This document shows positions 621 through 49,854 of a stretch of DNA of 64,000 bases, one piece after another (within the stretch, counting starts at the first letter, position 1; each line of letters begins with the position of its first letter). The position numbers and the translations under genes are program-made. The notes under the pieces were generated by a model. That model made no database searches. It was not told the DNA's origin and saw only the letters and a program-made list of their open reading frames with translations. This DNA is from Hemileia vastatrix. Taxonomy: Eukaryota; Basidiomycota; Pucciniomycetes; Pucciniales; Zaghouaniaceae. The stretch spans positions 18,552,001-18,616,000 of the forward strand of contig JASXTE010000015.1 in assembly GCA_030280995.1 (NCBI GenBank), read 5' to 3'.

Positions 621-635
621 ATCAAACTGTTTTGA

Positions 636-11173: not shown

Positions 11174-11175
11174 AT

Positions 11176-11288: not shown

Positions 11289-11754
11289 TGTGGTAGCCTA
11301 AAGTTTAGTACGGCACCTAAATACGTAAATGGAGTTATTACGGCGTGCAAGATTGGCGTTATTATTTTTTTTATATATAAAAGGGTTTTATTTAATTTAT
11401 TTGAGTTTTAAATATGAAGAAATTGGTCACGAGCGAATGCCTACACGAAAACAATTTATTTTACAGAGAAAACTTATTTTTATGGTCTGAAGAGTTTATA
11501 AGTATCAATTCGAGTCACTAAAGAACCTTGGGAAATTTTCCCAGAATTTTTACTATTTTTCTTATATTTTTAAATGAATTTTAAAGTTTTATAGAAATAT
11601 TTACGTTTTCAGAAATTACTTAACTTCGATGAATTTTCACGGGGTAATTAGAGCTGCGCAGACTACGAAAATTAGTTTGGAATTTAAAGGGGAAGTAGCT
11701 CTATTATGTGTAATTTTTCTAGATTTTTTATTATAGTTTTAAGGTTCTAATTGA

Positions 11755-11930
11755 GTCCGGAAGTCCGGACGGACTCCGCTTTGACTCCGTATGGACTCCG
11801 CTTTGACTCCGTACGGACTCCGTTCGGACTCCGCTTTGACTCCGTACGGACTCCGTTCGGACTCCGCTTCGGCTCCGTACGGACTCCGTACGGGCTCCGG
11901 ATTGACTCTGGAAGAGCTCTGGAGGGGAAA
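11755..11930 (+). repeat. Tandem ~10-bp repeat in the A-family LTR
   Basis: Runs of GGACTCCGTAC, GGACTCCGTTC and TGACTCCGCTT, many with a TCCGTACGGA palindrome. The same array is shorter in the 3' LTR (about 32452-32590) and much shorter in A' (about 60176-60262), so copy number varies between LTRs of one family. It is CpG-dense compared with its surroundings. Confidence 0.88.
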
Positions 11931-12453
11931 ACTTAGGCACGTGACTATGAATACTTAAGCGCTTCTCAAATTCGAAATTGAGAGGGGGGGACACATCATA
12001 CAGCTTAATCATTAACTACCACAGTCTCATTTTTTATTACTCAACAAATTAAATAAGTTATAATACCCTTATAACATTTATTATTTTTACATAACATTTT
12101 AGAAATACAATTCAACAATTTAAATCACACTTCATACAGGGTATCTTTAGAAAGGTCTTCGTCGCTGGGACTTGATTATTGCTGTCTCATAAAAATTCAA
12201 ATTATTATAAAAACATAAAAGTCAATCTTTACAGATCTTTCACTGGTACACCTTAATTGTTGTTATCAGTATTTCTTTATCAACAGCCACTTTCTTTAAA
12301 TCTCAATAAGCGTTAATTATTTTGGAGTTTCATTATTTTTATCAATCAGATTCAAGTAGATTGGTTAGCTTAGTGATTTAGAATTCCCATTTTGTTATTT
12401 TTATTGGAAGGACGGGGTTTTCAGCTAAATCCACATATCTCCACCGGATTCTG

Positions 12454-12475
12454 CTTACAGCAAGGCGACTGTAAG
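12454..12475 (+). promoter_or_regulatory. Stem-loop at the 3' end of the A LTR
   Basis: CTTACAG, loop CAAGGCGA, CTGTAAG: a perfect 7-bp stem. It is kept in the 3' LTR (near 33130, loop CAAGGCAA) and in A' (near 60812). Its place just before the PBS suggests a leader-RNA structure; that role is inferred. Confidence 0.55.
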
Positions 12476-12493
12476 AGTTTACCTTACCATAGT

Positions 12494-12510
12494 TGGCCCC
12501 CAACGTGGGG
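12494..12510 (+). other. Primer binding site of element A
   Basis: TGGCCCCCAACGTGGGG, two bases after the LTR end. The A' copy reads TGGCGCCCAACGTGGGG (60853-60869), so this copy carries one substitution. The priming tRNA was not identified. Confidence 0.75.
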
Positions 12511-12562
12511 TTGGATTTATCTAGCTTTCTTTAAAAGACTTACTTGGATCAAGAACGTTATT

Positions 12563-12625
12563 AGCCTGCAAGAGGCTTATTTTCTGGAACTCTAATTGGA
12601 TTTTTGTTATTGGCCTGCAAGGGGC
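12563..12625 (+). promoter_or_regulatory. Two leader stem-loops with GCAAG loops in element A
   Basis: AGCCT-GCAAG-AGGCT at 12563-12577 and GCCT-GCAAG-GGGC at 12613-12625, both between PBS and gag. Equivalent sequences occur in A' near 60920 and 60972. Repeated identical loops in a retroelement leader could be packaging or translation signals; this is inference. Confidence 0.4.
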
Positions 12626-12668
12626 TTGTTATTTTATCGATTGTTAACGCTTTTCATTACTTATTGGG

Positions 12669-15197
12669 ATGTCTTCTTCTGCTGTTGCTTCTGGATCTTC
12701 TAACCCTCTTACTCCCTCAGTTAGAATTGTTTCTTGGGATGGCCCAAAGTTTGATGGGGAGGAGGTTAAATGGTTCATTAGCAGGTATGAAGCTGCTGCT
12801 GCTGTTGATGGTGCTTCTCATGTGGATATGGTGAAGCAAGAAAGGTTTTTTATTGCTGATAGGGTGGTGGAAAAAGAGGTTATTGCTATGCAGGCATTCA
12901 AGGACAAGGATTGGGTTAAGCTTTCTAAAGCTATGGTTGATAGATGGGGTGTTAGGTTTACTATGATGGACCTCAATAAAATTGTTGGAGACTGGCAAGC
13001 AAAAGGTGGAGTTTCTTCTATGGCTGACTTCAAAAAGCTCTGTGTTCAGTTTGATGAAGTGGTGGAATATCTCATACTGGTGGACGAGTTAGTGCATGAG
13101 AACCAAGCAAAAGATTTGTTTTGGACAGCATGCAGCAGGGATATTCGAATGGACGTCTTGAAGGATCTTTCAAGAAAAGATTTGATGAAGGAACTGCCTA
13201 ATGGTGAGCAGAAACTGCCGGCTCTGGAGGTTATCAAAGAGAACATTCATGCCCATCTAAAGTTATTAGCGTTGGACAAATATCAAGAGTCATGTACTCA
13301 ATATGTTAGCAAGGTTAGCAAAGTTTTGGCCGAAAACAACGATATTATGGTCAAAGCCCAGGAGGCCAAGAAGGCTCAAATGGGATTACCTGCTGCTAAA
13401 GTTGAGGGTAATGTAGATAATAAGATGGTCGATCACCTGGCCGATTTAACTAAACAATTAAAAATATTTGTTCAAGAAACCCAGAAGGCCAACAAGGCCC
13501 CAATCGCTTCTTCGTCGACGTTGACTTCTTATCAGTCTAGAGGTTATGAACGTTGAAATTATAATGGCAATAACAACGGTAACCGCTTCCCAGGCAATGG
13601 GAGAAATGGTGGGAATGGTGGTAGTAATGGATATAGAGGTGGCTACGATGAGCCAAAGGTGTGCTCCTATTGTAATAGGAGGGGTCACAGAGCAACAGTT
13701 TGTTTTGCTCTTGATAAGGATATGGATTCTGGGCGAGTTTTATTTGATGGTAAAGTTTATAAATTTCCTGATGTTTCGTTCATCAAGCCCAGTGATGGAC
13801 AGTCTCCTTCTAATTTGGTCAGAAGAAGTTTAACGGCTGAAAGGAGAGCCAGATTTGAAGAGGTGACGGATGAAGATGTTAATGCCAAGAGTGGCAAAAA
13901 TGGTAATGGTAATGGTGGAAAAGCTGACAAAGGTAAAGAGAAAGAGGTCAGTAAAGCCACATTTTCTACTTCTTTTGGTGGTTTAGAGCTGGAGACGGTT
14001 GCCCAGGTGGAGGGTACCTGTATGGCTGGCAAATACGATGTTAATGCTGCTAGAAGAGCAGCGGCTACTAAGGCGAAAAGTAGCATTCAGAGAAAATTAA
14101 GGGCTAATCCTGGCAAGGCCAATAACAAAGTGAACCCTTACTCTAAGGACAAGAGTTCTAGTGATCAAACTGCCGCCAACAAATTGAACCCTTACTCTAA
14201 GGATGAATTATATAAAATGCAGAAGGGGATTGCTGATATGGGGCCCCCTAGTTATGGCAAGTTTGATTTAAATGGTGAGCCTATGCCAGAGGATGATTCG
14301 GATTCTGAGGAGGACGTACCGTTGGCGTCTCTACCCAGACCAAGTTTTAGCGGTCCCATCCCAATGGAGGGAGTAAGAAGGACTAGCGATGGATCAGGAT
14401 TAGTGCAAGAAGCTGGTGACGGAGTTAGGGTTATAGAAATTGAAGATGTTATAATGGGGGGTGAAGATAGCTCGGTTGGACCTCAAGAGGTACCCAGGGC
14501 CAAGGTTGTTAAATCAAAGGTCCAGTATGAGCGGCCAGTAGTTTCTGGTCAAGCTAATGCGATGGACGCAGTTTTGAATAGGGTGAATCAACTTCAGATT
14601 CCCTTATCTTTGGGGGAGTTATTTACGATTAGTCCGGCGCTTGCTGAAAAGCAAAAGAATCATTTGACGAGGCGTCAGGTTTCCACTGGAGAGGTGGAAT
14701 ATATTTGTGAAAATGCTGAAAAGTTTGGGGAAGATGTAGATACGGATTTTTCTGCTCCCCTGGGTTACCTGGTGGTAACTCTTAACGGTAAAGAAGTAAA
14801 GGCCTTGGTTGATTCAGGGTCTCAAATTAATTTAATTTCATTAGAGCAAGCGACGAGTATAGGCTTGCCAATTAAAAGTGGAACTGGGGGAAACCTCAGA
14901 GGCATTGGAGGGCATGCAACAGAGCTGATGGGCACAGCTGAGCATGTCAGGTTAGGCATTGGTGGATCTGTTGGTAAGGTTCACTTTTATGTGGCCAGAG
15001 GAGCAGTCAAAACTGTTCTGGGTGGTCCTTTTTTGATGGATTTTGAGGCCAGGATAGGGTATCAAGCTGGCATGGGAATTAGTTTGGAAATCACTGGTGA
15101 AGATATGCGGAGGTTACATATGCGGTTAGCGCCTCCTGGAGATGAAGGTTGGGAAACACGGCCAGGGATTACTACTCTGTGCCAGTGTTGTGTTTGA
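12669..15197 (+). pseudogene. Element A gag-protease, one internal TGA
   Basis: Starts at ATG 12669 (MSSSAVASG). The Gag part runs to a zinc knuckle, CSYCNRRGHRATVC (C-X2-C-X4-H-X4-C, ~13660). A charged/serine-rich linker follows, then an aspartic protease with VDSGSQINLIS (~14805), a DSG rather than DTG active site. Frame is broken by TGA at 13554-13556; copy A' has CGA (Arg) at that site, so this is a C-to-T change at CpG. A second in-frame TGA at 15195-15197 ends the frame and is shared by A'. Gag would form the particle and bind RNA; the protease would cut the polyprotein. Confidence 0.88.
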
Positions 15198-15932
15198 ACC
15201 AAGAAGCGGCATATTAAACGGACGGCTTCTGGTGAATTATGTTTGTTGGAAAGGGATGGATGCCCTCATTTTTTTTGGGTAGCAGGGGCTGATCACTCTA
15301 ATGTTGTAATCTCTCCTCAGGATGAGATCCCGGATTGCAATAGGTCAGCTCACTTGGAGATAATTCAAATGGATTCTCAATTATTTTCTGTTAATATTAC
15401 TTTGGAGTGCAAATATGTTTTGGACTTTTCTATATGTTTATTGGATTTACCCTGTTTTTATATTAAATTTAAAAATGGTAAAAAAGGCAAAATGGGCCAA
15501 ATTAGGTTGGATAAAAATTGGAAGGGTATGTTTTTGGACCTCCAGCAAGAGGGTGAACTGCAAAAATCTTATCAAAATCCGATTAAAAATCTCAGTATAA
15601 TTAAAACACAAAAAAATAATTTTTGTGAAAATTCAATTTTGGTTCTCCAGCAAGAGGTTAAACTGCCAACTTTCTTTACGGGTGATTTACTGTTGGATAA
15701 GGGAAGCAAAGGTGTTGGAAAATCTGTTTATAAGTTAGACGAGGGAAAGGAGAAAAGGGTAAAATTTGAAAATGAAATAAAATATTTTTATAATTTTTCT
15801 TATTCTGATTCTGGCGATGAAGAAGATTCATTTGATGAAATTTTTAATGGCGATACAAAAGAAAATGTTTTACCTCCAGTTTATTTAGATGTGGACGCAG
15901 CCAAATATAAGAAAGTAGCAAATAAAGTTTGA
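15198..15932 (+). CDS. Element A spacer frame between protease and RT
   Basis: Same frame as gag-protease, open from just after the TGA at 15195 to TGA at 15930-15932, about 243 codons. It has no ATG near its start, so it would need read-through or another mechanism. The protein shows no domain I recognise; the end is acidic (DSGDEEDSFDEIF). It contains two 23-nt hairpin modules (15539-15561 and 15645-15666) translated as LQQEGEL and LQQEVKL. Element C has a much more broken spacer in the same place. Confidence 0.5.
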   Translation, partial: TKKRHIKRTASGELCLLERDGCPHFFWVAGADHSNVVISPQDEIPDCNRSAHLEIIQMDSQLFSVNITLECKYVLDFSICLLDLPCFYIKFKNGKKGKMGQIRLDKNWKGMFLDLQQEGELQKSYQNPIKNLSIIKTQKNNFCENSILVLQQEVKLPTFFTGDLLLDKGSKGVGKSVYKLDEGKEKRVKFENEIKYFYNFSYSDSGDEEDSFDEIFNGDTKENVLPPVYLDVDAAKYKKVANKV

Positions 15933-16853
15933 CCTATTAATGAACCGCTACCTGCTGAATTAAATCCACCTTTGAGAAGACCAAGGTTATCAAGAGATCC
16001 TTATGAAAGTCCCTTGGTAAAGAATCCGCCTGAATTTTCTGAGACGTCAAGAATCACTTTTGAGAGACTGGGTGTTGTTAATTTTGGACCTGATGGTTGG
16101 TTGTCTGGAGAAGAGAAGAAGTTTTTGTTGGATGTGATGGTCAAGCGAGAGAAGGCCATTGCTTTTGTAGAAGAGGAGAGGGGTGTGTTGAAGCATTCCT
16201 ATGGGGAGCCTTACAAGATTCCTGTGGTATGTCATGAACCGTGGCAGCAGAAACCGATTCCTATTCCGGCTGCATTGAAAGAAGCTTATATCAAAGTTGT
16301 CAGAGAACGGATACGCACTGGACTTTATGAGAAATCAACATCAAGTTATTCTAGTCCGGTATTTTGTATCAAGAAACCGAATGGCAAGCTTAGAGTTGTT
16401 CATGATATTAGGGAATTAAATAGGGTTACAATAAAGGATGCTGGGATACCGCCTAGTGCTGAGGAGTTTGTTGAAGCGTTTGCAGGGAGAGTGTGTTATG
16501 GTTTGGGAGATATTATGGGTGGATATGATGAGAGAGAGTTACATCCGGACTCAAGGCCACTCACTACATTTGATACACCACTAGGACGTTTACAGTTAAC
16601 AAGATTACCTCAAGGAGCAACAAATTCAGTTGCAGTTTATCAAGCTCAGATGGCTTGGATCCTTCAAGACGAAATTCCACAATATGCTAAAATCTTTATA
16701 GATGATGGAGGAATTAAGGGACCAACAACCGACTATGATAACCAGGTGTTGGAAGAGAATCCCGGGATACGCAAATTCATTTGGGAGTTTGCAATTACTT
16801 TAGAAAGAATCTTGTTTCAAATTGAAGAGGCTGGTTTAACTATTTCAGTTTAA
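15933..16853 (+). pseudogene. pol: Element A pol: reverse transcriptase, truncated by stops
   Basis: Open from just after TGA 15930 to TAA 16851. The RT fingers/palm begin around SSYSSPVFCIKKPNGKLRVV (~16340), with LPQGATNS (~16610) and the active-site motif IFIDDGG (~16690). The second catalytic aspartates are in F-I-D-D, where many Ty3 elements have Y-[IV]-D-D. The thumb/connection region continues after TAA 16851 in the same frame. RT would copy element RNA to cDNA inside the particle. Confidence 0.87.
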
Positions 16854-18353
16854 AAATTTTCATTTTGTGTGCCAGCTTTAGAAATATTAGGCCATGTGGT
16901 ATGTAGAGAGGGTAGGATTATGTCCAAGAAGAAAGTTAACAAAATTCAGTCCTGGCCAAGACCCAAGAATACAACTGAAGTCAGAGGATTTTTAGGCGTT
17001 TGCGTATATGTTAGAATGTTTATCAAGGACTTTTCTTCATTGGCAGCTCCATTGAGGCGGTTAACAAGAAAGGATGCAGACTGGGAGTGGGATGAAGAGT
17101 GTGAGAAGGCGTTTGTGAAGTTGAAGGAGGTTGTAGGGAAGGATTTAGTCCTGCACAAGTTGGATTATGGAAAAGGAGCTGGCAGAATTTATTTAGCAGT
17201 TGATTCAAGTCAGGTTGCAGCTGGGGCGGTTTTGTCTCAGATGGATAAAGCTGGTTACATCAGGCCAGTTAGGTATGAATCTGTAGTATTTACTGAGGTC
17301 GAATCAAGATATTCTCAACCAAAATTGGAATTATGTGGTGTGGCGAAAATACTGAAGAAACTTCAGCATATTTTGTGGGGGCAACATTTTGAGTTGCAAG
17401 TGGATGCGAAATCGTTAATCCAGATGATTAATTCCCCAAGTTTACCGAACGCACCCATGACGAGATGGGTAGCTTTTATTCAACATTTTTTGTTTGATTT
17501 AGTTCATAAGCCTGGTAAAACTTTTACTATGCCAGATGGTTTATCAAGGAGACCACCCACTGAAGAAGATTCAGACTCAGAAGAGTTCGATGAAGATATA
17601 CCTATTATCAAAGCCAGCACTAAAGGAGCTGAAGACTTTCCATACCTCCCCCATGAGGTTAAACTGGCAGGACTATTGTGTTTAGATTATGATGATGATG
17701 ACCTCCACCAAGAGGATAAACTGGAAAATAGTTTTTATGTTAATAAAGGTGTTGGAAAAGGTGTAGATAAATTCGGCAGAGAGGAGGTAGAAGAAGATGT
17801 GGTGTATGTAGAGGAAGATGGATTGGCAGTGTGGGATAGTAGTAAATTAAGGAATGGTGTATATCTTGGAGAATTAGAGAATTTAAATAAAAAGGTGGAT
17901 AAAGAGATAGAGGTATTTTCAAATACGGTTTACAAAGGATCCAAAGGTTCAGATGAAAAACGACGACATAGCTCGATTAAAGATTTATTTAGGGGTCAAC
18001 GATTATTGGCTCATTCATGTGCAGGTGATATTGGTGATAGAGAAGTCCCTATTGATGTTATATTAATCGATTTTCAAGATGAAGTCTGGGGTCAGACTGG
18101 TTTTTATTTTTTGTTAGTCAAACATTTGTTGACTTTAGAGAGGCCAGAAGATTGTGAAGACGATGAATGGGTGGCTATCAAGAGGAAGTCATCTACGTTT
18201 TACCTATCTGGTCGACGTTTAATGAGGAGAAGGTATCCAAATCCTCAAGTAGTTATAACTCAAGAGAAGGGGCAAGAATTAGTTTTGAAATCACTGCATG
18301 AAGATCTCGGGCATAGAGGCGTTGGAGAAATGTTTAGAAGAATTTCTGATTGA
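16854..18353 (+). pseudogene. pol: Element A pol: RNase H and linker, ends at a TGA
   Basis: Starts with the RT connection region (LGHVVCREGRI, GFLGVCVYVRMF). RNase H shows IYLAVDSS (first Asp, ~17195), SRYSQPKLELCGVAKIL with the catalytic Glu, and LQVDAKSL (Asp). An acidic linker of about 250 codons after SRRPP carries two hairpin modules (17645-17667, 17702-17724). The integrase zinc-binding His pair (LHEDLGHRG, ~18300) lies before TGA 18351-18353. The equivalent site in C encodes Arg-Phe-Arg, so this TGA is probably a mutated Arg codon. Confidence 0.85.
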
Positions 18354-19358
18354 TTTTGGTGGCCTGGCATGAAGATGGCTGTTAAACAGTGGGTTCAGTC
18401 ATGCGAAGAATGTCAAAGACGAAGTTATTTAAGGCCAAAAGAACCTGGACGCGCAACCGGTGAATATACGCTCTTTGGAAGAGTTAGTTTAGATGCCGTT
18501 CATATAAAAGAGGGACGGTATAAATATTTAATTGTGGCAAGAGATGATTTATCTGGTTGGGTAGAGGCAGCGCCTCTTATTAATTTAACTGCCAAAAATG
18601 TGGCAGAATTTTTTTTGAATAATTGGGTATATAGGTATGGGGTGATGAAGTTTGTAACGGTAGATGGAGGTCCTGAATTTGGGACAGAGTTTAAAGAGGC
18701 TGTATTGAAAGTTGGATCAAAGGTTAGGGTAGCAACCCCATATTATCCTGAAGCTGAAGGCATGGTTGAAAGAGGGCATCAAGTTATTAAGGATGCTTTA
18801 GTTAAAATGTGTGGGACAAGTGCTGAAAAGTGGAGGCACTATTTACCTTTAGTTTTATTTGCTGATCGAATCACTGCCAAAAGGACGACCGGATTTTCAC
18901 CTTATGAACTTGTTTTTGGACAGAAAGCAGTAGTACCGGTTGATTTAGAAGCTGAATCATATCTTGGAGTTGACTGGGAAACGGTCAAAACTACTGAAGA
19001 ATTATTGTGTGCAAGAATGATGCAGCTAGAAAAGAAAGAAGAATATTTAGAAAAGGCATATTCGCGGATGATGAAGATCCGAAATCAATCAGTCAGATAT
19101 TGGGATGAGCGGTTGGCACATCGATTAAGGAAACCTTTGAACCCAGGAGATATGGTCCTGGTGTATAATAGGAGTTTGGAAAGTCAGTGGGGAAAGATGT
19201 TTGCAGATAGGTGGAATGGACCGTATAAAATCAAGGAGCAAGTTTCCGGCGGTTCATATGTGCTAGAAGAGTTGGATGGAGTAGTATTAAAGAAGAGGGT
19301 AGCAGCCGATCAAGTGAAACGGTTCTATCCTAGAGGCACCAGGAGTCTTAAAGTCTAA
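18354..19358 (+). pseudogene. pol: Element A pol: integrase
   Basis: Continues in the frame of the preceding fragment. CEECQRR completes the HHCC zinc site. Catalytic DDE core: SLDAVHIKEG (D, ~18500), VDGGPEFG (D, ~18665) and PEAEGMVERGHQ (E, ~18760). The C-terminal part includes LNPGDMVLVYNRS and KMFADRWNGPYKI, a GPY-like module (~19210). No chromodomain is visible, unlike B and D. The frame ends at TAA 19356-19358. Integrase would join cDNA to the host chromosome. Confidence 0.87.
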
Positions 19359-19524
19359 CTCCGAAATGAGGATAAACTACAATTTTAATGACATTTATCA
19401 AATTTTATACCTCCGCAATGAGGATAAACTATGATATCAATGAAATTTTATGGATTCCTCCGTAATGAAGATAAACTATGATGTTTATAAAAACCTTATC
19501 GACCTCCGTAACGAGGATAAACTA
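19359..19524 (+). repeat. Hairpin modules, 3' noncoding array 1 of element A (4 copies)
   Basis: Copies at 19359-19379, 19410-19431, 19457-19477 and 19503-19524: stem CCTC, loop CGNAAT or CGTAAC, stem GAGG, tail ATAAACTA. The first copy follows the integrase stop directly. Copy three has a broken stem (GAAG). All are on the element's sense strand. Confidence 0.85.
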
Positions 19525-20319
19525 TCTTCTTTTTATCAAATACTTTACTGTCTTTACACTGCATATGGGTGACGAAACAGTGATGAAACTTAACGAAATG
19601 CAAGAAAACCTTCTTTGAAATTTTCGAAATTTAAAATTCTTAAAATATGGGTGAAGATAGTGTTGGAAAATTTTAAAAATTTATTGGAAGAAGTGTTCAC
19701 AGGGGAACCTTCTTAATTTAATATTGGCAAGTGTGGGGGTAATTGATGGGCTGGCTGCTCTATACACAATTACCCCATAATGTTCGTTTCCAAAATTTTC
19801 CCTGTTTCTAGTTGAATCCTGGCTTTGTCTTTTAATTTTAGGAAGTCCACTAAGACTATAAACTGGAACGAATCAAGAGACACCGCTCTCAACACCGGAT
19901 TCAAGATTTTTTTTATTTTGTTTTTGATTTTTTATGTTAGATTGTGATTTCTTTTCTTTAATATATATTATGAATTATTGTAAAGGTGATGCTCACTGGT
20001 GGTCTCTAATCATTTTTATAAATTGGAGAGAGCCCACCCAGTGATCATCATTATAAAAATTATCTTCTAAAAACTTTCATTTATTTTCTTTTCTTTTCAA
20101 TTTCTCAAAATTGTGTAACCACATCAAGTTGCACTTGGATGTGGGTATGATGTCGAGGGTACGGCTCATCAAATGGCCGGGGGGGCATCTTTTAAAAATT
20201 TTATTTAAAAATTTTTTATTATTATTACTTTTTTTATCTTTCTTTTTACATTCTTTTATCTTTCTTCAAAAATTATATTTTAACTTTTATTTCAAAAACT
20301 ATCTTTTCTAAAATCTTTT
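19525..20319 (+). other. Element A 3' noncoding stretch
   Basis: No coding frame of note. It holds two similar blocks around GGGTGA (19567 and 19649) and an imperfect inverted pair, CACTGGTGGTCTCTAAT (19998) against GAGCCCACCCAGTGA (20030), that could form a hairpin. The role is unknown. Confidence 0.5.
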
Positions 20320-20365
20320 ATTTTAAATTAAAAACAAAATTAAAATTAAAAATAAATAAAAATAA

Positions 20366-20396
<31 letters not shown>

Positions 20397-20545
20397 TAAA
20401 AATAAAAATAAAAAAAAATAATAAAAAAATAAAAAATAAATAAATAAAAAAATAATTAAATAAATAAAAAATAAAAATAAATAAATAAAAATAAAATAAT
20501 AAAATAAAAAAAAATAAATAAAAAAAATTAATTAATTAAATCAAA
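20320..20545 (+). repeat. A/T low-complexity tract (AAATAAAA)n
   Basis: Irregular tandem AAATA/AAAATA units over about 225 bp with no C or G in most of the tract. Lies within the 3' noncoding part of element A. Confidence 0.9.
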
Positions 20546-21571
20546 ATTATTATTATATTTCTTAGTTTTATTTTTCAGTCTTCATTATTTTTAGTCTTAT
20601 TCATTTAGTTTAGACAGGAAACAGGGTCTAGGGGAACTCAATACCTATGGTATTTTACTTCAAGACATCTGTTAGTCCTCCAAGACTTTAAACTGGCTAC
20701 TGTTCAAGATGTTCTTTAAGTTTTTTTTATAAGATTTTATATTGGATCTGTTAGTCTTCCAAGACTTTAAACTGGCTACTCTTCAAGACATTCTTTAAGG
20801 TTTTTTTTTACACGTATTTTGGATCTGTTAGTCCTCCAAGACTTTAAACTGGCTACTGCTCAAGACTTTCCTTAAGGTTTTATACGAATTTTGGAGCTGT
20901 TAGTCCTCCAAGACTTTAAACTGGCTAATTTTCAAGACTTTCATTAAAGATTTTATATTGGAGCTGTTAGTCCTTCAAGACTTTAAACTGAATTTCAAGG
21001 ATGATTAAGATTTTATGGATATTTTTGGAGACGGATTTTTTTTTATATAAATCAAATGTTAGGTCCACCAAGACCTTAAACTGGAGTGTTATCAAATGTT
21101 AGGTCCACCAAGACCTTAAACTGGGCTGTTATCAAGCTGTTGGGTCCACCATGACCCTAAACTGGATTTCTTATCGATTAAATGTTTGGTCCACCATGAC
21201 TTTAAACTGGCAGTTCATTCATTGTTTTAGTCCACTATGACTTTAAACTGGAAAATTAATATCTGCAGGATAATTCAACATTCATTCGACCACTATGGCC
21301 TTATACTGGATTACTTGTCGATCAAATGTTTGGTCCACTATGACATTAAACTGGATTATCAAATTTATTCAATCTTTGGTCAAGCCTAGGCCTTACTTAG
21401 GAATTTATCAAGTTATTTATGCACCTAAACGATCTTTGGTCCACCAAGACCATAAACTGGCAATCGATTATATGTTTGGTCCACCAAGACTTTAAACTGG
21501 AATGTCAATCTTGTTTGGATAACTCAATTCAATCTTTTAATTTATCACTGTCCACTAAGACTCTAAACTGG
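20546..21571 (+). repeat. Hairpin modules, 3' noncoding array 2 of element A (~16 copies)
   Basis: Copies begin at 20674, 20753, 20830, 20902, 20969, 21062, 21102, 21143, 21188, 21229, 21287, 21332, 21378, 21438, 21478 and 21550. The first five have stem AGTC/GACT with loop CTCCAA or near; most later ones have GGTC/GACC or GGTC/GACT with loop CACCAA, CACCAT or CACTAT. The tail is TTAAACTGG, ATAAACTGG or CTAAACTGG. Copies at 21287 and 21378 are degenerate. Spacing is ~40-80 bp with unrelated AT-rich fillers. Confidence 0.88.
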
Positions 21572-22229
21572 TTATTCAATTATTTCTGGAATTGGGTGCT
21601 GATAGCTTTAGGAGGTTAAAATTTTAGGTGGTGATGATGCTAAGGAAAGCATAATGGTTAATTAGGTGAAATTTGTGGCGCTTTAACATGGTATAAAGTT
21701 AATATTATTATTGGAAGCCTGGCAAAAGTATTTTATGGGTTTGCTGTATAGAAAAGTTTGAAAATTGTGATGAAGGAATCAGAAGTTAGGATGGTAGTTG
21801 GATTTTAGGGAATGATTTTTTTTAGTGCCTCATAGTTAGGCCATTTTTTTTGGTGTGAAGCTTGGAGGACCTTATGGCGAGATTGGAATCATAGAATTTG
21901 GCTCAGTGGGGGGCCCTATGAGGTTGGAATCAGGAGTATTCGGCTCATAGGAAGATCCACTCTCTCAATGCTGTGACAAGAAGGAAGACTGGTATATGGG
22001 AGTCTGAAGGGATTCAAACCTTGCTCTCGTAGTGGAATCATCACAAGATTTATTTTATTTTATTTTATGTTATATCAAGCCAGAGAAGAAGAAACAATGT
22101 TTTTATTATAAAGATTTAAAAGAAGACCAGCTAAAACAAATTTATCAAATTATTTTATTAGAAAAGATAATTATTTTGGAATTTCTCAACCACTTATGCA
22201 AAGTTATAAGAATGGGGACATTCTCAATT
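21572..22229 (+). other. Element A 3' end before the polypurine tract
   Basis: Noncoding. It contains a purine-rich repeated block (AGGACCTTATGGCGAGATTGG at 21868 compared with GGGGCCCTATGAGGTTGGAA at 21907). No convincing open frame. Confidence 0.5.
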
Positions 22230-22239
22230 GGAGGGAGGA
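22230..22239 (+). other. Polypurine tract of element A
   Basis: GGAGGGAGGA directly before the 3' LTR start TGTGGTAG, the expected plus-strand primer position. Element C has AGAGGGAGGA in the same place. Confidence 0.8.
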
Positions 22240-22715
22240 TGTGGTAGCCTAAAGTTTAGTACGGCTCCTAAATACGTAAATGGAGTTATTACGGCGTGCA
22301 AGATTGGCGTTATTATTTTTTTATATATATAAAAGGGTTTTATTTAATTTATTTGAGTTTTAAATATGAAGAAATTGGTCACGAGCGAATGCCTACACGA
22401 AAACAACTTATTTTACGGAGAAAACTTATTTTTACGGTCTGAAAAATTTATAAGTATTAAGTCGAGTCACTCAAGAACCTTGGGAAATTTTCCCAGAATT
22501 TTTACTATTTTTCTTATATTTTTAAATGAATTTTAAAGTTTTATAGAAATATTTACGTTTTCAGAAATTACTTAACTTCAATGAGTTTTCACGGGGTAAT
22601 TAGAGCTGCGCAGACTACGAAAATTAGTTTGGTATGTAAAGGGGAAGTAGCTCTCTTATGTGTAATTTTTCTAGATTTTTTATTATAGTTTTAAAGTTCT
22701 AATTGAGTCCGGAAG
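22240..22715 (+). repeat. 3' LTR of element A, left part (split by element B)
   Basis: First 476 bp of the LTR. It ends at GGAAG (22711-22715), one copy of the B target duplication; the LTR resumes after the second GGAAG at 32447-32451. Confidence 0.93.
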
Positions 22716-24219
22716 TGTCAGGCTAGGGTCAAGTACAAGGACGTGAACTAGCTTGAATAGTCAGTTGTCTAGAAGATTTAAATGGTCCTATATGAATACT
22801 GTAATATAAATCCAATAAGTAGTAAAATATAATCAAAATTTTAAAGGTCTCAGTAATATAATTCTCACTAGTCTTATATATGGCTTACAATCTTTGTAGT
22901 TGGTAGAAAAATAGATTTTATAATTCAGATACTATTCAAAAGTCTTTTTAAAAGTACTAATTGATATGTATTGTAATTTGTTTGGTTATATTGGTTAATT
23001 GTAAATGATAAAGAATGAAGAAATACAACCCAAAAACCTCCTCCTTTTTATACACACTGAGTTCCCCAATGATTCCCTTGATGTACCACCCAATACACAG
23101 TTAATCACGCCTCTAAACAACTAATAGACATTCCCATCAACAATCCCAGTGATCCTTGACATAATTAGAAGAGTAACAACCGCCAAAATCCTGAAATAAC
23201 AAGGGAAATCCATCAAAATTAAAGAAAAAGACAAAAAGAGAGTATATGCGTATAAAACAATAATATTAAGGACTAAAGGAGACTTTTTAAGGTTAATAAT
23301 AGCTTAATAATAAGGGGGATTTAATGTAGAAATAATGGGGCTAATCCTGACATTATACTACGTGAAATTCCCATTCAAAAATAACCAAAATTGACTGAGA
23401 AACCACCCAAAAACTTAAAAAAGAGCGTGAGATGTGGGGTAACTACATGCAGTTCTTGGCAGGCGCTTGCACGGGTAAATCCTTGACTAAAATTAGGCGA
23501 GTTTAAGCGTGGTGATGAAATAAAGTGCCAAGAGTGAGGTTATTAATGAAATTAGTGCATATAAACAGGGTCAATGCATTATTAATTAAGCTAGGACACT
23601 AAATAAGCGCCTGTCGCCTATTTTAGTGTGTTTCCCCACAGTGGGCGTAAAATGTGGGGTAATTATAGTGTGAAAAAGCTAACTTTGCTAAAAATGAAGC
23701 TATTCACACGGGAAAAAAGCAGGCAGTATGTGGCCAGTACACAGAAGCCATTTCTGGCATAAAAAACACCAAATTTGAAAAGTGTTAATTTTATGCATTT
23801 AAATAGCCAAATCAATAGTTCTAAATGAGCCCAATTGATCTGTCAAAGCGCAATTTTGATATTCTCAATTTTATAGCGCATATAGTCAACTTTTAAGTGA
23901 AATAAAGCGCATTTCTTGTTTTTTGCATAAAACAATGAATATAACAGCTTTAAGTGTACTTAAAAATTATGCAGCCTTATACTTAAGGTTCTTAAGATTA
24001 CCCTAACATATTCCAACTTAATATTAAGTACATAAGACCTATAAAAGGTGGATATATGCGTGTATATAAGGTGTTATAATGGCATTTTTTGTGTATTATC
24101 ATAATTTTACTTATGTATACTATTTGTGTACTCTTATTTATTATTCCCATGTATAGTTCATGTGTTTAACATAACTTATAAGTACTTTTTACTCAGTCCT
24201 GGAGATATACAGGCTGACA
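22716..24219 (-). repeat. 3' LTR of element B
   Basis: 1504 bp, apparently identical to 30943-32446. TGTCAG/CTGACA terminal inverted repeat. A CCTCCTCCTTTTTATACACAC stretch (~23037 on plus) may belong to promoter or 3'-end signals on one of the strands; I cannot assign it. Confidence 0.95.
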
Positions 24220-24230
24220 CTCGCCCACCC
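24220..24230 (-). other. Polypurine tract of element B
   Basis: On the minus strand GGGTGGGCGAG lies directly before the 3' LTR TGTCAG end; preceded by a T-run. D has the same tract at 51356-51366. Confidence 0.75.
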
Positions 24231-24400
24231 AAAAAAACAATAAAAAAAATGATAAGTTATACATTTTATTTTATTTAATTTGTAATTTTCAGGTATTCAG
24301 AATAAATCTGTAGCATTAAAGATTCAACTTTAAAGAAATAAAACATAATAAAATATTATGAGTACTGGTTTTTTAACCCCTCAGCTGGTTGAACAGAAAT

Positions 24401-27400
24401 TTATTTCTGTTTAAATTTTTTAAGAAGGGTGGATAAATTAGAAATTTCTTTTTCAGGTATCCATTTATCAAATTCATTTGATTTCCCTTTAAATCTTAGT
24501 AAATACTCAGTTCCTTTTTCTTTAGTAAGGATTCTTTTCTTGAGTATTTTCTCAATCTCTGCTTTTTCCACAATTTCTTCAGGTTGCTTTTTAGGCCTTC
24601 CCCTTCTTTTTGGAAATAAGTCAGGATCATTTGCATGGTAAGGTTTCAATAATGAGATAGGGAAAACTGGATGTTTCCTATCATATGGAGCATATAATAT
24701 GACTTCCACTGCATTATTCCCAACCATTTTATTTACTACAAAAGGTCCTACAAAGGGATCCTTTAATTTAACATTACCTTGTAAGTTAAAATGTAGTGTT
24801 GATATGAGGACTTCATCTCCCTTTTTAAATTCAAATTCTTTATGAGATTTGTCCCACCTTTTCTTTTCATATTCAAATGCTTTTTGGATGCATTCTTCTG
24901 CATGCTTTCTACACATTTGTTGCATATGAATAAAGGATTTCGTGCCAGGGTGTATATCCAACCTTGGTAGCTTATTTAAAAGATTTACTGGGGTATTTGG
25001 TACATATCCCAGCCAGAGTTCAAATGGTTTCTTCTCTGTTACAGAATGAGTTGTGCTGTTATAAGCAAATTCAAGGCCAGGAATTAATGTTACCCAGTCA
25101 TGTGTGAATTTCTCATTGTCTTTGTATTCTAATCCAAAGGCACAATATCTTCTGATCATGTCTTCAAGAGTTTGTATCATCCTCTCAGCCAGCCCATCAG
25201 TTTGTGGATGGTGTGCTGTAGACAATTTTAATTGACAACCTGATACTTCCATCAAAGATGTCCAGAACTCTGAAGTAAATTTAGGGTCTCTGTCAGAGAT
25301 TATGGCTTTGGGGAACCCAGCAGTATTCATCATCTGAGTCCACCATAGTAATGCCAAGTCTTTTGCAGATACCTCTTTATGGGTAGGGATAAACTTACAC
25401 ATTTTTGTTAATCTATCCACTATTACCCAGCAAGAATTGAAACTTTCTTTTCCTGCTAATGGCAAGCCAGTTACAAAATCCATGTTTATAATTTCCCATG
25501 GAGCTTTTGGCTGCTCTATTTGTTGTAACAACCCAGCTCTCTTCCCAGTTAATCTTTTAGATTTCTGACAAGAGTCACATGTTTCAATGTATTTTTGTAC
25601 ATCCTCTTTCATGTTTATCCACCAGGCTGTATTTTTAACTCTGGTTAATGTTTTGTTAAAGTCAAAATGACCAGCTAAGATGTCATCATGACAAGTACTC
25701 AACATTAACTCTTTCATAGAAGGTGGTATTACTATTACATTGCTTAACTTTTTCCTGTAATATATATATCCATCTTCAATTGATAGTTTACCTTTTTCCA
25801 ACGCATTTTTATACTTTGGAGGCAAGGTTTTAATTAATGCACTCATGGAGGCATTTGTTGGATCATTAAGAATGGTAGATAGTTTAGACAAATCTTTATC
25901 AGATGAATAATTTTCCAATATAGTTTGCATAAACTCTTCTTCTAAATCCACTATATAAATCCCAAATATATGTATAACCTCATTTTCAGGTACATAAGCT
26001 GGGTTGTCAGCATCATTTGGCAAAGGACTTCTTGATAATAAATCCACATTTGAATGCAATGTTCCTGCCCTGTGAGTAATTGTCATTCTTCCTCTGTACT
26101 CTTGTACAGCTAGTTGCCATCTAAACATGTGCCTATTAGGTGTTTTCATGTTTAGTAATGATTTTACTGCACTGCAATCTGTTATAAGTTCAAACTTCTG
26201 ATCTTCCAGATAGTAATGAAGTTTCTCCAAAGCCCACACCACGGCTAAACATTCTAGCTGTGTGGCACCATACCTTAGTTCTGTCTTTCTTAAGGTTCTG
26301 GATATATAACAGATAACTACTTCAGATAATTTTCCATTTATTATCTGTTTTTGCTGTAAAGCAGCACCCAAACCTATGAAACTTGCATCAGTGTACAAGA
26401 TAAAAGGTAGGGTGAAATCTGGCAGTCCCAATATTGGAGCTGACATCAAACATTCCTTTAATTTGTTAAAGGCGTGCTGTCTTTCATTATTCCAAATGAA
26501 AGCTTCATTCTTCCTGATTAATGTTGTTAAAGGGGCTGCAATGGATTGGTAATTTTTAATATATTGTCTATAATATCCACACATACCTAAAAAACTTTGA
26601 ACCTCTTTTACATTTTTAGGTATCCCAATGTTTTTAATTGCTGCCACTTTATTCTGGTCAACACAAATTTGTAATCCAGATACAACATGTCCAAGTACTT
26701 TCAAGGATTGAAATCCAAACTTACATTTCTTTAATGCAATAGTCATATTAATTTCATCCATTTTTTGAAAGACTCTTTTCAGGTGATTTAAATGTTCATC
26801 ATATGTTTTTGAAAACACTATGATGTCATCAATATAGACCAATAGCCATCCTTCAACCATTTCTTGATGAAAAACACTATCCATCAATTTTTGGAAGACT
26901 GAAGGGGCATTCTTTGGGCCAAATGGCATTCTCACATACTTATAAATACCCATATGTGTGGTTATTAATAAGTAATTTTGAGAATCTCTTTCCACAGGAA
27001 TCTGGTGGTAACCCTTGTTCCCATCCAGACAGGAAATATATTTTGCTCCTTGTAAGGTAGCATGGATAGAAGCTATCCTTGGTAGAGGGTAAATATCATC
27101 TACTGTATATGTATTCAGAGCTCTATAATCACCACATAATCTTGCCTTATCTTTTTCATAAGAGATTAATACTGGTGAAATGACACAATACTTCGGTGTT
27201 GTGTCCACTTTTTCAACAATACCCATTTCCAACAACAATTTTATATTGTCTTCAATATCTTTCCTTTTTGCAGGAGATGCTGGGTAAGGTTTCTTTTTTA
27301 AGCTGCCAGGAATATTATCCAGATCACAGCTTAAAGAGATTTTCATCTCATGGTTTTTGACCAATCCTAGTTCATTTGAGCCATGAGCAAATGCCATAGG

Positions 27401-30322: not shown

Positions 30323-30925
30323 AAAGGAGTTTTATCAGTATTTATCAATACCACTGAAGACAATTTTCTTGCTTACTTATTGGTATGAAGTGAATATTTA
30401 AGTGCCAAAAGTCAAATATGCTTTTATGTGGTCACTTGATTTAACTGGTCTACAATATGTAGCCGTGTTTTTATATTCAAAAGAAAACAACTGTCAGTAT
30501 GATTCTTTCTAAATATTTAATGAATTTTACAAACCAATAAAAGAGAAGATTAAGAGTCCTGTTAAAAGAAAACAATTAATCAGTTTAATTGGTTATCATC
30601 TGCAAAGATCACAAATTTAATTGGTCTATTGACAGACTCCCACTAAGAACAATTATATGTTAAATTAGTGGTAAAAATTTTATCTGCAAAGATCTCAAAT
30701 TTAATTGGTCTATTAACAGACCCACTAATAACAATTATAAGTTAAATTAGTGGTAAAATTGTTGATTCAATATCACAATTTTATAATATAACAGGGCTTC
30801 TTTTTCTAAAATCACTATATAAGTGACCCCAACCTGTTGTAATTATCCAAATACTTTTATAGGGATATTATTTACGTGCACCTTCTCTTGAAAATTTCAC
30901 TTACCAGGATTATAACAGAATTCTT
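30323..30925 (-). other. Element B 5' leader
   Basis: About 600 nt between PBS and the ORF, AT-rich, with no further frame. It includes an imperfect ~80-bp tandem duplication (30599-30682 and 30683-30760, starting TCTGCAAAGATC). D has a single copy (~57714-57795), so the duplication arose after B and D separated, or D lost one unit. Confidence 0.7.
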
Positions 30926-30940
30926 GAGGAAAGGCCCCCA
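30926..30940 (-). other. Primer binding site of element B
   Basis: Minus strand TGGGGGCCTTTCCTC starts two bases inside the 5' LTR, with the TGG expected for a tRNA-primed site. D keeps it (57959-57973). Self-priming is not excluded; no matching complementary segment was seen in the LTR. Confidence 0.65.
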
Positions 30941-30942
30941 AT

Positions 30943-32446
30943 TGTCAGGCTAGGGTCAAGTACAAGGACGTGAACTAGCTTGAATAGTCAGTTGTCTAGA
31001 AGATTTAAATGGTCCTATATGAATACTGTAATATAAATCCAATAAGTAGTAAAATATAATCAAAATTTTAAAGGTCTCAGTAATATAATTCTCACTAGTC
31101 TTATATATGGCTTACAATCTTTGTAGTTGGTAGAAAAATAGATTTTATAATTCAGATACTATTCAAAAGTCTTTTTAAAAGTACTAATTGATATGTATTG
31201 TAATTTGTTTGGTTATATTGGTTAATTGTAAATGATAAAGAATGAAGAAATACAACCCAAAAACCTCCTCCTTTTTATACACACTGAGTTCCCCAATGAT
31301 TCCCTTGATGTACCACCCAATACACAGTTAATCACGCCTCTAAACAACTAATAGACATTCCCATCAACAATCCCAGTGATCCTTGACATAATTAGAAGAG
31401 TAACAACCGCCAAAATCCTGAAATAACAAGGGAAATCCATCAAAATTAAAGAAAAAGACAAAAAGAGAGTATATGCGTATAAAACAATAATATTAAGGAC
31501 TAAAGGAGACTTTTTAAGGTTAATAATAGCTTAATAATAAGGGGGATTTAATGTAGAAATAATGGGGCTAATCCTGACATTATACTACGTGAAATTCCCA
31601 TTCAAAAATAACCAAAATTGACTGAGAAACCACCCAAAAACTTAAAAAAGAGCGTGAGATGTGGGGTAACTACATGCAGTTCTTGGCAGGCGCTTGCACG
31701 GGTAAATCCTTGACTAAAATTAGGCGAGTTTAAGCGTGGTGATGAAATAAAGTGCCAAGAGTGAGGTTATTAATGAAATTAGTGCATATAAACAGGGTCA
31801 ATGCATTATTAATTAAGCTAGGACACTAAATAAGCGCCTGTCGCCTATTTTAGTGTGTTTCCCCACAGTGGGCGTAAAATGTGGGGTAATTATAGTGTGA
31901 AAAAGCTAACTTTGCTAAAAATGAAGCTATTCACACGGGAAAAAAGCAGGCAGTATGTGGCCAGTACACAGAAGCCATTTCTGGCATAAAAAACACCAAA
32001 TTTGAAAAGTGTTAATTTTATGCATTTAAATAGCCAAATCAATAGTTCTAAATGAGCCCAATTGATCTGTCAAAGCGCAATTTTGATATTCTCAATTTTA
32101 TAGCGCATATAGTCAACTTTTAAGTGAAATAAAGCGCATTTCTTGTTTTTTGCATAAAACAATGAATATAACAGCTTTAAGTGTACTTAAAAATTATGCA
32201 GCCTTATACTTAAGGTTCTTAAGATTACCCTAACATATTCCAACTTAATATTAAGTACATAAGACCTATAAAAGGTGGATATATGCGTGTATATAAGGTG
32301 TTATAATGGCATTTTTTGTGTATTATCATAATTTTACTTATGTATACTATTTGTGTACTCTTATTTATTATTCCCATGTATAGTTCATGTGTTTAACATA
32401 ACTTATAAGTACTTTTTACTCAGTCCTGGAGATATACAGGCTGACA
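30943..32446 (-). repeat. 5' LTR of element B
   Basis: 1504 bp, matching 22716-24219 base for base as far as I compared. Followed on plus by ggaag, the second copy of the target duplication. Confidence 0.95.
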
Positions 32447-33168
32447 GGAAGTCTGGACGGACTCCGTTTTGACTCCGTACGGACTCCGCTTTGACTCTGT
32501 ACGGACTCCGCTTCGACTCTGTACGGACTCCGTTCGGACTCCGCTTCGGCTCCGTACGGACTCCGTACGGGCTCCGGATTGACTCTGGAAGAGCTCTGGA
32601 GGGGAAAACTTAGGCACGTGACTAGGAATACTTAAGCGCTTCTCAAATTCGAAATTGAGAGGGGGGGACACATCATACAGCTTAATCATTAACTACCACG
32701 GTCTCATTTTTTATTACTCAACAAATTAAATAAGTTATAATACCCTTATAACATTTATTATTTTTACATAACATTTTAGAAATACAATTCAACAATTTAA
32801 ATCACACTTCATACAGGGTATCTTTAGAAAGGTCTTCGTCGCTGGGACTTGATTATTGCTGTCTCATAAAAATTCAAATTATTATAAAAACATAAAAGTC
32901 AATCTTTACAGATCTTTCACTGGTACACCTTAATTGTTGTTATCAGTATTTCTTTATCAACAGCCACTTTCTTTAAATCTCAATAAGCGTTAATTATTTT
33001 GGAGTTTCATTATTTTTATCAATCAGATTCAAGTAGATTGGTTAGCTTAGTGATTTAGAATTCCCATTTTGTTATTTTTATTGGAAGGACAGGGTTTTCA
33101 GCTAAATCCACATATCTCCTCCGGATTCTGCTTACAGCAAGGCAACTGTAAGAGTTTACCTTACCATA
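32447..33168 (+). repeat. 3' LTR of element A, right part
   Basis: Begins with the duplicated GGAAG, continues with the TCCGTACGGA tandem array (to ~32590) and ends TTACCATA. Then tcgt (33169-33172) closes element A's target duplication. Confidence 0.92.
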
Positions 33169-38420: not shown

Positions 38421-39254
38421 GGATGGGTTGAAGCAGCGCCATTGATAAACCTCAAGGCAAGTAATGTGGCCAAGTTTTTGAAGAAAGAATGGATTTATAG
38501 GTATGGGGTAATGAAGATGGAAACCGTAGATGGTGGCGCTGAATTTACAGGAGAATTCCAAGAAGTAGTAAAAGGTATTGGTGCAAAGTTACGAGTTGCA
38601 ACACCATATTATCCTGAAGCAGAGGGAATGGTAGAAAGAGGGCATCAAGTTATAAAAGATGCGCTAGTTAAGTTATGTTGAAATAATGGGGCGAAGTGGA
38701 AGAACTACTTGCCATTAATTTTGTTTGCGGAAAGGATTTCAGTTAAAAGGGCAACAGGGTTTTTGCCGTTCGAGCTTATGTTTGGTCAAAGGGCAGTATT
38801 ACCTATTGATCTGGAGGCTGGATCTTTCCTAGGATGTGATTGGGATCAAGTGCGCTCAACCGAAGATTTAATTCTAGCAAGGGTAGCGCAACTTGAAAGA
38901 AAAGACGAGTTTGTGGAGAAAGCGTATGAAAGAATGATGCAGATCCGGGACAAGTCAGTTAAATATTGGGATGAGCTCTTAGCGCATAGGTTAAGAAAGC
39001 CATTGAACCCAGGAGATTTGGTTTTGGTTTATAATAGAAGTTTAGAAAGCCAATGGGGGAAGATGTTTTCTGACAGATGGAATGGTCCTTATAGGATAAG
39101 AAAGCAGATAACTGGAGGGTCTTACTTACTGGAGGAATTAGATGGTACTGAGTGGAAGCGGCGTGTGGCCGCAGACCAGATCAAAAGATTCTACCTACAG
39201 GGTGTTCCAGTGATACAAGATAGCCTCCGGAATGAGGATAAACTACCAGAATAA
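38421..39254 (+). pseudogene. pol: Element C pol: integrase core and C-terminus
   Basis: Continues with VDGGAEFTG (second Asp, ~38530) and PEAEGMVERGHQ (Glu, ~38620). TGA at 38679 breaks the frame (A: Gly-Thr). The C-terminus with LNPGDLVLVYNRS and the GPY-like KMFSDRWNGPYRI ends at TAA 39252. No chromodomain. Confidence 0.85.
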
Positions 39255-39276
39255 TACCTCCGGGAAGAGGATTAAA
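39224..39276 (+). repeat. Hairpin modules at the integrase stop of element C (2 copies)
   Basis: 39224-39245: CCTC-CGGAAT-GAGG-ATAAACTA, overlapping the end of the integrase frame. 39257-39276: CCTC-CGGGAA-GAGG followed by ATTAAAAT. Same place as array 1 of element A. Confidence 0.8.
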
Positions 39277-44400: not shown

Positions 44401-44631
44401 ATGCAATAATTTTCTATTACAGCTGAGTTATTTCCTTTTGAATTAATTATGAACATACATAGATATCCATATTTTATAGAGACAGATATTCATGAGAAAG
44501 CTCATCTGTCTCTCCACTCAACTCTTCATTATTAATTATTTTCAAAATAAAAAATTCATTATAGTAGTGTTTTTGTTGCCATATCCTTTCAAAATTTTAT
44601 ATTTTTTTTCATTTTGCTTTTCATAACGTAT
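44401..44631. other. AT-rich spacer
   Basis: No gene or repeat seen; lies between divergent gene remnants and probably contained their promoters. Confidence 0.4.
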
Positions 44632-49849: not shown

Positions 49850-49854
49850 AAAAT

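What the first reader, a model, noticed from the sequence alone, without database searches (positions are those of the whole stretch)
15539..21571. A 23-nt hairpin module repeated ~24 times in element A, with stem covariation
Seen directly: 4-base stem, six-base loop (C-N-N-N-A-[A/T/C]), matching 4-base stem, then NTAAACTGG. Stems come as CCTC/GAGG, AGTC/GACT and GGTC/GACC, so two base pairs change together while pairing is kept; GGTC/GACT keeps a G-U pair. Copies lie in pol linkers (15539, 15645, 17645, 17702), directly after the integrase stop (19359-19524) and in a long 3' array (20674-21571), always on the sense strand. Conservation across coding and noncoding DNA argues for selection or spread at RNA (or DNA) level, not protein. 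Possible roles: packaging signal, binding site for Gag or a host protein, RNA stability element, or a self-spreading mini-repeat. I know of no described element of this form.
Basis: partly seen in the sequence, partly recalled or inferred. Interest (0 to 1): 0.87.

Follow-up and report, generated by a model that had tools for sequence, protein, structure and literature searches.

The report
Repeated RNA-like module in fungal retrotransposon
A jumping element in what looks like a rust-type fungus carries about two dozen copies of the same 23-letter motif, in genes and between them, and the pattern of changes suggests the motif works as RNA (or DNA) rather than as protein, although what reads it is unknown.

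Summary
All are on the sense strand; none outside this family in the window. Between location clusters the module is 68% identical and its flanks 28-29%. Coding copies in A and B keep rare arm codons, and the integrase-end copy is 21/23 identical between A (at the stop) and B (coding), so nucleotides are constrained. The arms change together: the second pair is GC or CG, never mixed, in 27 distinct copies (home-made tree-aware simulation, E 0.01-0.03). Against a stable hairpin: stems are weak, the array folds worse than shuffles, and the outer pair is not significant. Relatives' proteins show no module-like peptide repeat; their noncoding DNA was out of reach. Best reading: a multi-copy cis-acting RNA recognition site, with Gag the favoured reader (inferred). 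Host-protein stability or export, a DNA-site array and neutral expansion remain open. The host genome could not be searched.

The parts
11289..33168 (+). Ty3/gypsy element A: 5' LTR 11289-12491; 3' LTR split into 22240-22715 and 32447-33168 by nested element C (which carries a chromodomain). TCGT stands directly before and after A.
   Evidence: Self-comparison; LTR alignment; flanks; Pfam domains
15539..15666 (+). Two module copies in the protease-RT linker (15539-15561, 15644-15666), CTC/GAG stem, coding
17645..17724 (+). Two module copies in the RNaseH-integrase linker (17645-17667, 17702-17724), CTC/GAG stem, coding
19358..19525 (+). Four copies at and after the integrase stop TAA (19356-19358): 19358, 19410, 19457, 19503; CTC arms, GNRA-type loops (19457 has a broken second pair). 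Read from base 2 all give LRNEDKL, differing only at third codon positions.
19844..19866 (+). Isolated copy in the 3' untranslated region, AGTC/GACT
20674..20991 (+). 3' array part 1: five copies in tandem units of about 72 nt, AGTC/GACT stems
21062..21571 (+). 3' array part 2: nine clear copies, several spaced about 40 nt, with GGTC/GACC, GGTC/GACT, AGTC/GACT, GGTC/GACA and TGTC/GACT arms; degenerate copies near 21287 and 21374
37643..37763 (+). Element B, RNaseH-integrase linker: 33-nt units with copies 37643, 37676, 37709 and a weak one at 37742; GTC/GAC arms (ATC/GAC in 37709), GNRA-type loops, coding
39224..39279 (+). Element B, integrase C-terminus: one clear copy (39224, coding) and one degenerate copy (39257) after the stop codon at 39252-39254
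63894..63916 (+). Copy in A2, a second A element cut off by the window end; the reading frame at this place in A2 was not established

Best explanation
The module is a cis-acting recognition site carried in many copies by the genomic RNA of one Ty3/gypsy family (elements A, A2, B). Shown within this window: precise 23-nt unit, sense strand only, found only in this family, nucleotide-level constraint in coding and noncoding DNA, arms that change together at one pair. Inferred: it acts as RNA, a short hairpin with a single-stranded UAAACUGG tail; a protein reads hairpin plus tail; many weak sites give avidity. Favoured reader (inferred): the element's own Gag, which has a CCHC zinc knuckle, so that dispersed sites in pol and the 3' UTR drive selective packaging or particle assembly of the element RNA. 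Arrays grew by tandem duplication while selection kept the module and let spacers drift.
For: Between nine location clusters (27 copies, 302 pairs) identity is 67.8% in the module, 28.1% upstream, 29.0% downstream. In five units of about 72 nt, 3 of 23 module columns vary against 21 of 38 ungapped spacer columns (Fisher p 0.0012; 22 gapped columns dropped). Arm codons of the nine coding copies of A and B: Leu is CTC in 5 of 5, Val GTC in 3 of 3, Ile ATC in 1 of 1, Asp GAC in 4 of 4, although these make up 3.8%, 10.1%, 18.5% and 18.0% elsewhere in the frames; Glu is GAG in 5 of 5, not rare (43%). The copies share descent, so these are not independent draws. Integrase-end copies of A and B agree at 21 of 23 positions, at the stop in A and coding in B. 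Arms: 93.3% of cells paired; second pair 14 GC, 10 CG, 2 broken, in 26 distinct rows; 0 of 27 mixed; E 0.013 to 0.03 for that pair. Both stem types occur with both loop types, so the stem switched more than once unless modules recombined. Loops fall in two classes: GNRA in 10 of 10 with G at position 6, NNYA in 17 of 17 others. The three GNRA-type copies folded alone beat most of their shuffles (z -2.5 to -3.0). No site above 4 bits in element C or its 94%-alike copy at 49852-57792. A and B Gag regions have CCHC motifs. For yeast Ty3, RNA localisation and packaging depended on UTR or POL sequences (PMC4974528, passage seen).
Against: Twelve copies folded alone have only -1.4 to -4.7 kcal/mol, and the nine NNYA-type ones are no better than shuffles. 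The whole array folds less well than all 20 shuffles (z +2.5). With 75 nt on either side, mean stem pairing probability of 27 copies is 0.40, the same as with shuffled flanks (0.41, p 0.77), and the tail is not more accessible than its surroundings. The outer pair is not significant alone. Two of the five pair measures do not exceed shuffles: pairs with a change on both sides (2 against 2.0) and further pair types (6 against 4.9, 105 of 500 shuffles). Covariation rests on one pair with two states. No reading protein was identified. [quoted passage not shown] Known packaging signals lie mostly near the 5' end (recalled), and no clear copy lies in A's LTR, leader or gag. Four copies at the stop differ only at third codon positions, which a coding past would also give.
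Confidence: 0.32

Rival explanations
1. [quoted passage not shown]
For: The first of four copies starts at the integrase stop in A, and two copies flank the stop in B. From stop to 3' LTR is about 2.9 kb in A. The RSV element lies directly downstream of the gag stop and counters decay of long-3'UTR RNAs (PMC5580461, abstract and passages seen).
Against: Copies also sit inside pol linkers. A host-protein site might be expected in other element families too, and element C and its copy in the window have none. Resemblance to the RSV element in sequence was not tested.
Confidence: 0.25
2. Array of DNA-binding sites, like the Drosophila gypsy insulator: a dimeric or multi-finger protein binds NTC-N6-GAN plus TAAACTGG.
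For: Weak RNA hairpins. AT-rich spacers. The gypsy insulator has 12 clustered Su(Hw) sites in AT-rich DNA in the element's 5' UTR (PMC2374998, passages seen). Inverted triplets spaced by 6 resemble fungal zinc-cluster sites (recalled).
Against: A duplex site has no obvious reason to forbid mixed half-sites, yet 0 of 27 distinct copies are mixed. No clear copies in the LTRs. The half-sites are not CGG. All copies have one orientation, though tandem growth explains part of that.
Confidence: 0.15
3. Neutral or self-spreading mini-repeat: tandem duplication and gene conversion copied the module without function for the element.
For: Tandem units of about 72 and 40 nt in A and 33 nt in B. Tandem repeats in 3' UTRs are common in the plant Tat lineage (PMC7004042, passages seen). 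One strand only, as tandem copying gives.
Against: Module columns vary less than spacer columns within the same unit. Flanks of different clusters are at chance. No copy outside the family in 64 kb (the best site outside A, A2 and B scores 5.4). Paired changes in the arms.
Confidence: 0.16
4. Peptide motif: the unit encodes [VLI]xx[DE]xKL in pol linkers and the integrase tail, and the noncoding copies are decayed coding sequence.
For: The nine coding copies of A and B share one frame. The four copies at A's integrase stop all read LRNEDKL and differ only at third positions. B carries LRNEDKL inside its integrase frame.
Against: Rare codons kept at arm third positions. In the 3' array 10 of 13 spacings, and at the stop 3 of 3, are not multiples of three (start positions). 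One of three frames has a stop in the tail, so a shared frame is a weak signal. Of the 120 listed protein relatives, 16 hold one [VLI]xx[DE]xKL string each, none a repeat. The linkers printed for 30 relatives (several truncated) and 11 integrase tails show no such repeat. Searches with the two A linkers gave no hit, which also means no relative with a comparable linker was available to test.
Confidence: 0.07

Closest known systems
Cis-acting packaging and assembly signals of LTR retrotransposons and retroviruses (Ty1, Ty3)
   Same: Sites within the element RNA, in an element whose Gag has a CCHC motif; in yeast Ty3, UTR or POL sequences support RNA localisation and packaging (PMC4974528, passage)
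   Different: Known signals are few and near the ends (recalled); Ty3 nt 429-4979 are dispensable with proteins in trans (same paper). Here about 24 copies of one 23-nt unit lie in pol linkers and the 3' UTR. Packaging was not tested.
[quoted passage not shown]
   Same: Location directly after a stop codon, before a long untranslated region (PMC5580461)
   Different: That element is one 400-nt stretch (minimal 155 nt), not a repeated 23-nt hairpin
Drosophila gypsy insulator (Su(Hw) site cluster)
   Same: About a dozen short conserved sites in AT-rich sequence inside a gypsy element (PMC2374998)
   Different: 5' UTR rather than pol and 3' UTR; duplex site with TGCATA core
Tandem repeats in 3' UTRs of plant Tat/Ogre elements
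   Same: Tandem arrays between pol and the 3' LTR of a Ty3/gypsy element (PMC7004042)
   Different: Those are described as varying in monomer sequence and length; here one module is constant and spacers vary, and it also occurs inside pol
Double-hairpin elements of fungal mitochondria (recalled)
   Same: Short repeated hairpins inside and between genes
   Different: Here one strand only, one element family, weak stem, conserved single-strand tail

Membership tests
Ty3/gypsy LTR retrotransposon (host element) | LTRs, primer binding site, protease, RT, RNase H, integrase in the order PR-RT-RH-IN | tested here: met
   LTRs; Pfam domains (the rve match of A is just below its cut-off). A PBS-like stretch follows the LTR; its match to a tRNA is recalled, not computed. 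A's coding region is broken by stops.
Described RNA families (Rfam 15) | Match at gathering score | tested here: not met
   0 matches in 11000-40000
Retrotransposon RNA packaging signal | Needed for selective packaging by Gag | not testable with these tools
   No experiment possible; CCHC motifs present
Structured RNA hairpin | Base-paired arms supported by covariation | tested here: inconclusive
   Pair 2-13 E 0.013 to 0.03, so met for one pair; outer pair E about 0.9; two pairs never vary
Structured RNA hairpin | Folds more stably than shuffled sequence | tested here: not met
   Of 12 copies folded alone, 9 at z -0.8 to +0.3 and 3 at -2.5 to -3.0; array z +2.5; in context 0.40 against 0.41
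Insulator-like DNA site array | Specific binding of a DNA-binding protein, enhancer blocking | not testable with these tools
   No mixed half-sites argues against a simple duplex dyad
Self-spreading mini-repeat | Copies outside the host element and on both strands | tested here: not met
   Tested within this 64-kb window only: none. Whole genome not reached.

The most novel reading that the evidence does not exclude
A retrotransposon family marks its own RNA with about two dozen copies of one hairpin-plus-tail word, spread through pol linkers and the 3' UTR and kept by selection even at the cost of rare codons and enlarged protein linkers, so that its Gag assembles on it by many weak contacts. 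This would be a multi-site self-recognition code of a kind proposed for some RNA viruses (recalled) but not, to my knowledge, shown for an LTR retrotransposon.
Probability: 0.2. Interest if true: 0.82.

Novelty: new variant of a known kind. Interest (0 to 1): 0.6.

Why it matters
How LTR retrotransposon Gag picks its own RNA is not precisely defined even in yeast (Ty1: PMC4974528, passage). A short, repeated, separable site that is maintained at nucleotide level inside coding sequence would be a ready-made handle for that question, and a marker for following this element family across fungal genomes.

Tried and rejected
Rfam scan of 11000-40000: nothing. tRNA scan: nothing. Module patterns in viral contigs gave 9 and 25 stretches with a single match each; I took them for chance because no stretch held two matches, and did not read them. 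The two-module pattern gave 0 in viral contigs and 0 in genome contigs; the genome collection is bacterial and archaeal, so that says little. Protein searches with the two A linkers gave no relatives. A literature search for TTAAACTGG with retrotransposon gave two papers, unrelated by title. Listings (hairpin, repeat array, packaging signal, fungal, LTR retrotransposon; Ty3 packaging, stem-loop; antisense frames, Zn2Cys6, gypsy, rust) showed, by title and start of abstract, no such module; that is no proof of absence from print. (host identity by GC content) was not followed. I considered and dropped: a peptide motif as the main reading (rare codons); a small-RNA target (does not explain paired arms; no data); a link between the module and the antisense zinc-cluster-like frames of element B (no such frames seen in A's 3' region).
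Full report
Setting. The window holds nested LTR elements. B (LTRs by inference 9840-11174 and 42322-43657, 97.1% alike) contains A (11289-33168), which contains element C, whose frame ends in a chromodomain (LTR rows 22713-24219 and 30940-32446, 99.9% alike; GGAAG stands on both sides, which puts C's start at 22716). A 94%-alike copy of C lies at 49852-57792, and a second A copy (A2) begins at 59723 and runs off the window. The pol regions of A and B are 68.6% (1653 columns) and 70.1% (879 columns) alike in DNA. Among the 120 listed protein relatives the named ones nearest the top are from Austropuccinia psidii and Puccinia coronata, so the host is probably a rust-type fungus; the species was not identified.

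The observation. A profile built from 29 copies gives 15.1 to 35.3 bits for the 28 clear ones (by construction), at most 10.5 for any minus-strand site, at most 13.7 for other sites within A, A2 and B (34825), and at most 5.4 outside them (48465). One copy, 37709, lies below the best control score of 17.4. A covariance model gives the same list: all 29 building copies at E 0.028 or lower, the next site at E 0.87.

What is conserved. Between nine location clusters (27 copies, 302 pairs) identity is 67.8% inside the 23 nt, 28.1% in the 40 nt upstream and 29.0% in the 40 nt downstream. Positions 3, 4, 9, 11, 12, 16, 18 and 19 are invariant in 29 aligned copies. Within five tandem units of about 72 nt, 3 of 23 module columns vary against 21 of 38 ungapped spacer columns (p 0.0012).

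Protein or nucleic acid. The nine coding copies of A and B share one frame and spell [VLI]xx[DE]xKL-like peptides, some departing from it (LQQEGEL, IRDDNKP). But the first-arm codons are CTC (5 of 5 Leu), GTC (3 of 3 Val) and ATC (1 of 1 Ile), and Asp is GAC in 4 of 4, while elsewhere in these frames CTC is 3.8% of 286 Leu, GTC 10.1% of 287 Val, ATC 18.5% of 157 Ile and GAC 18.0% of 211 Asp codons. Shared descent makes these fewer than nine independent cases. The integrase-end copy is 21 of 23 identical between A, where it starts on the last base of the stop, and B, where it is coding; windows as similar as this are 34 of 898 in the integrase alignment, so it is as conserved as the best-kept coding stretches, not more. 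Most copies are noncoding. Against this, the four copies at A's stop differ only at third codon positions, so a coding past for those is possible. The RNaseH-integrase linkers of A and B (256 and 213 residues from LSRR to GHRG) are longer than those of 29 of the 30 relatives (of 120) in which both anchors were found (82 to 169; one has 305).

Pairing. In 26 distinct rows 93.3% of arm cells pair; shuffles average 72.2% and none of 500 reaches it, nor the covariation score (0.442 against 0.115); the number of pairs with double changes (2) and of further pair types (6) does not stand out. The tool warns that related sequences can exceed such shuffles without structure. The second pair is GC in 14, CG in 10 and broken in 2; mixed states are 0 of 27. 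In a tree-aware simulation of independent columns that I wrote (300 runs, column pairs at least 3 apart), this pair has E 0.013 (tree from non-arm columns) or 0.03 (tree from all columns); the neighbouring combination 2-14 has 0.04 to 0.05 and the outer pair about 0.9. The slide control by +1 also gives a fairly high score (0.318), as columns 13 and 14 differ together. Both stem types occur with both loop types: GTC/GAC with GNRA-type loops in B's linker and with NNYA-type loops in A's array, CTC/GAG with GNRA-type loops at the integrase end and with NNYA-type loops in A's linkers (rows). That asks for more than one joint change, or for recombination between modules. All 10 loops with G at position 6 fit GNRA; all 17 others fit NNYA, 13 of them ANYA. 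Codon degeneracy (CGN, RAN) would also allow much of the GNRA variation.

Results against a hairpin. Twelve copies folded alone have -1.4 to -4.7 kcal/mol; the nine NNYA-type ones are no better than shuffles, the three GNRA-type ones have z of -2.5 to -3.0. The array as a whole is less structured than all 20 shuffles (z +2.5). With 75 nt on each side the mean stem pairing probability of 27 copies is 0.40, against 0.41 with shuffled flanks, and the tail is not unusually open. If the hairpin acts, it probably does so when bound, or briefly.

Mechanism. I favour a cis-acting RNA site read in many copies, with Gag first (CCHC motifs in A and B; found only in this family within the window) and host RNA-binding proteins second (site cluster at the stop codon). 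For yeast Ty3 a review states both that RNA localisation and packaging depended on UTR or POL sequences and that nt 429 to 4979 are dispensable for retrotransposition with proteins in trans (PMC4974528, passages seen): the first fits redundant sites in pol and UTR, the second shows that internal sites are not needed there. A duplex DNA site array is less likely because half-sites are never mixed. Neutral expansion explains the tandem layout but not the slower change of the module. None of these readers has been shown.

Breadth. Linker searches found nothing. Viral and prokaryotic contig scans were empty for the two-module pattern. The host genome could not be searched. So the module is known here only from three elements in one window.

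Noticed in passing
39991-40707 (-) and 41405-41926 (-): Antisense reading frames in the 3' region of element B with C-x2-C-x6-C motifs; weak Pfam Zn_clus matches below cut-off (E 0.02 and 0.0065). Possible antisense zinc-cluster genes carried by a Ty3/gypsy element; introns suspected by eye only.
   Followed up: partly
11783-11908, 32457-32587, 60183-60266: Arrays of an 11-nt unit GACTCCGTACG inside the LTRs of A and A2, forming CCGTACGG/CCGTTCGG palindromes; CGG-type palindromes resemble zinc-cluster binding sites (recalled).
   Followed up: partly
621-3531: Large block of 240/480-nt tandem and inverted repeats around AAAGTGTCCAGCA.
   Followed up: no
9840-43657: Three-level nest: B contains A contains C, with C in A's 3' LTR (GGAAG on both sides) and A in what looks like B's leader (TCGT on both sides).
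   Followed up: yes
47310-48257 (-): SNF2-type helicase fragment (Pfam E 1.1e-26), a gene or gene remnant between elements.
   Followed up: no
44551-45144 (+): 197-aa frame with a weak match to Borna disease virus P40 (E 0.004, below cut-off); could be chance.
   Followed up: no
15876-15883 (-): The only antisense TAAACTGG in the window lies in A's pol, without a module around it; about what chance gives.
   Followed up: no
45975-46046: Short array of an 11-nt unit GTTCAGTATGA.
   Followed up: no
20325-20531: About 200 nt of A-rich low-complexity sequence (AAAATA units) just before the module array in A.
   Followed up: no
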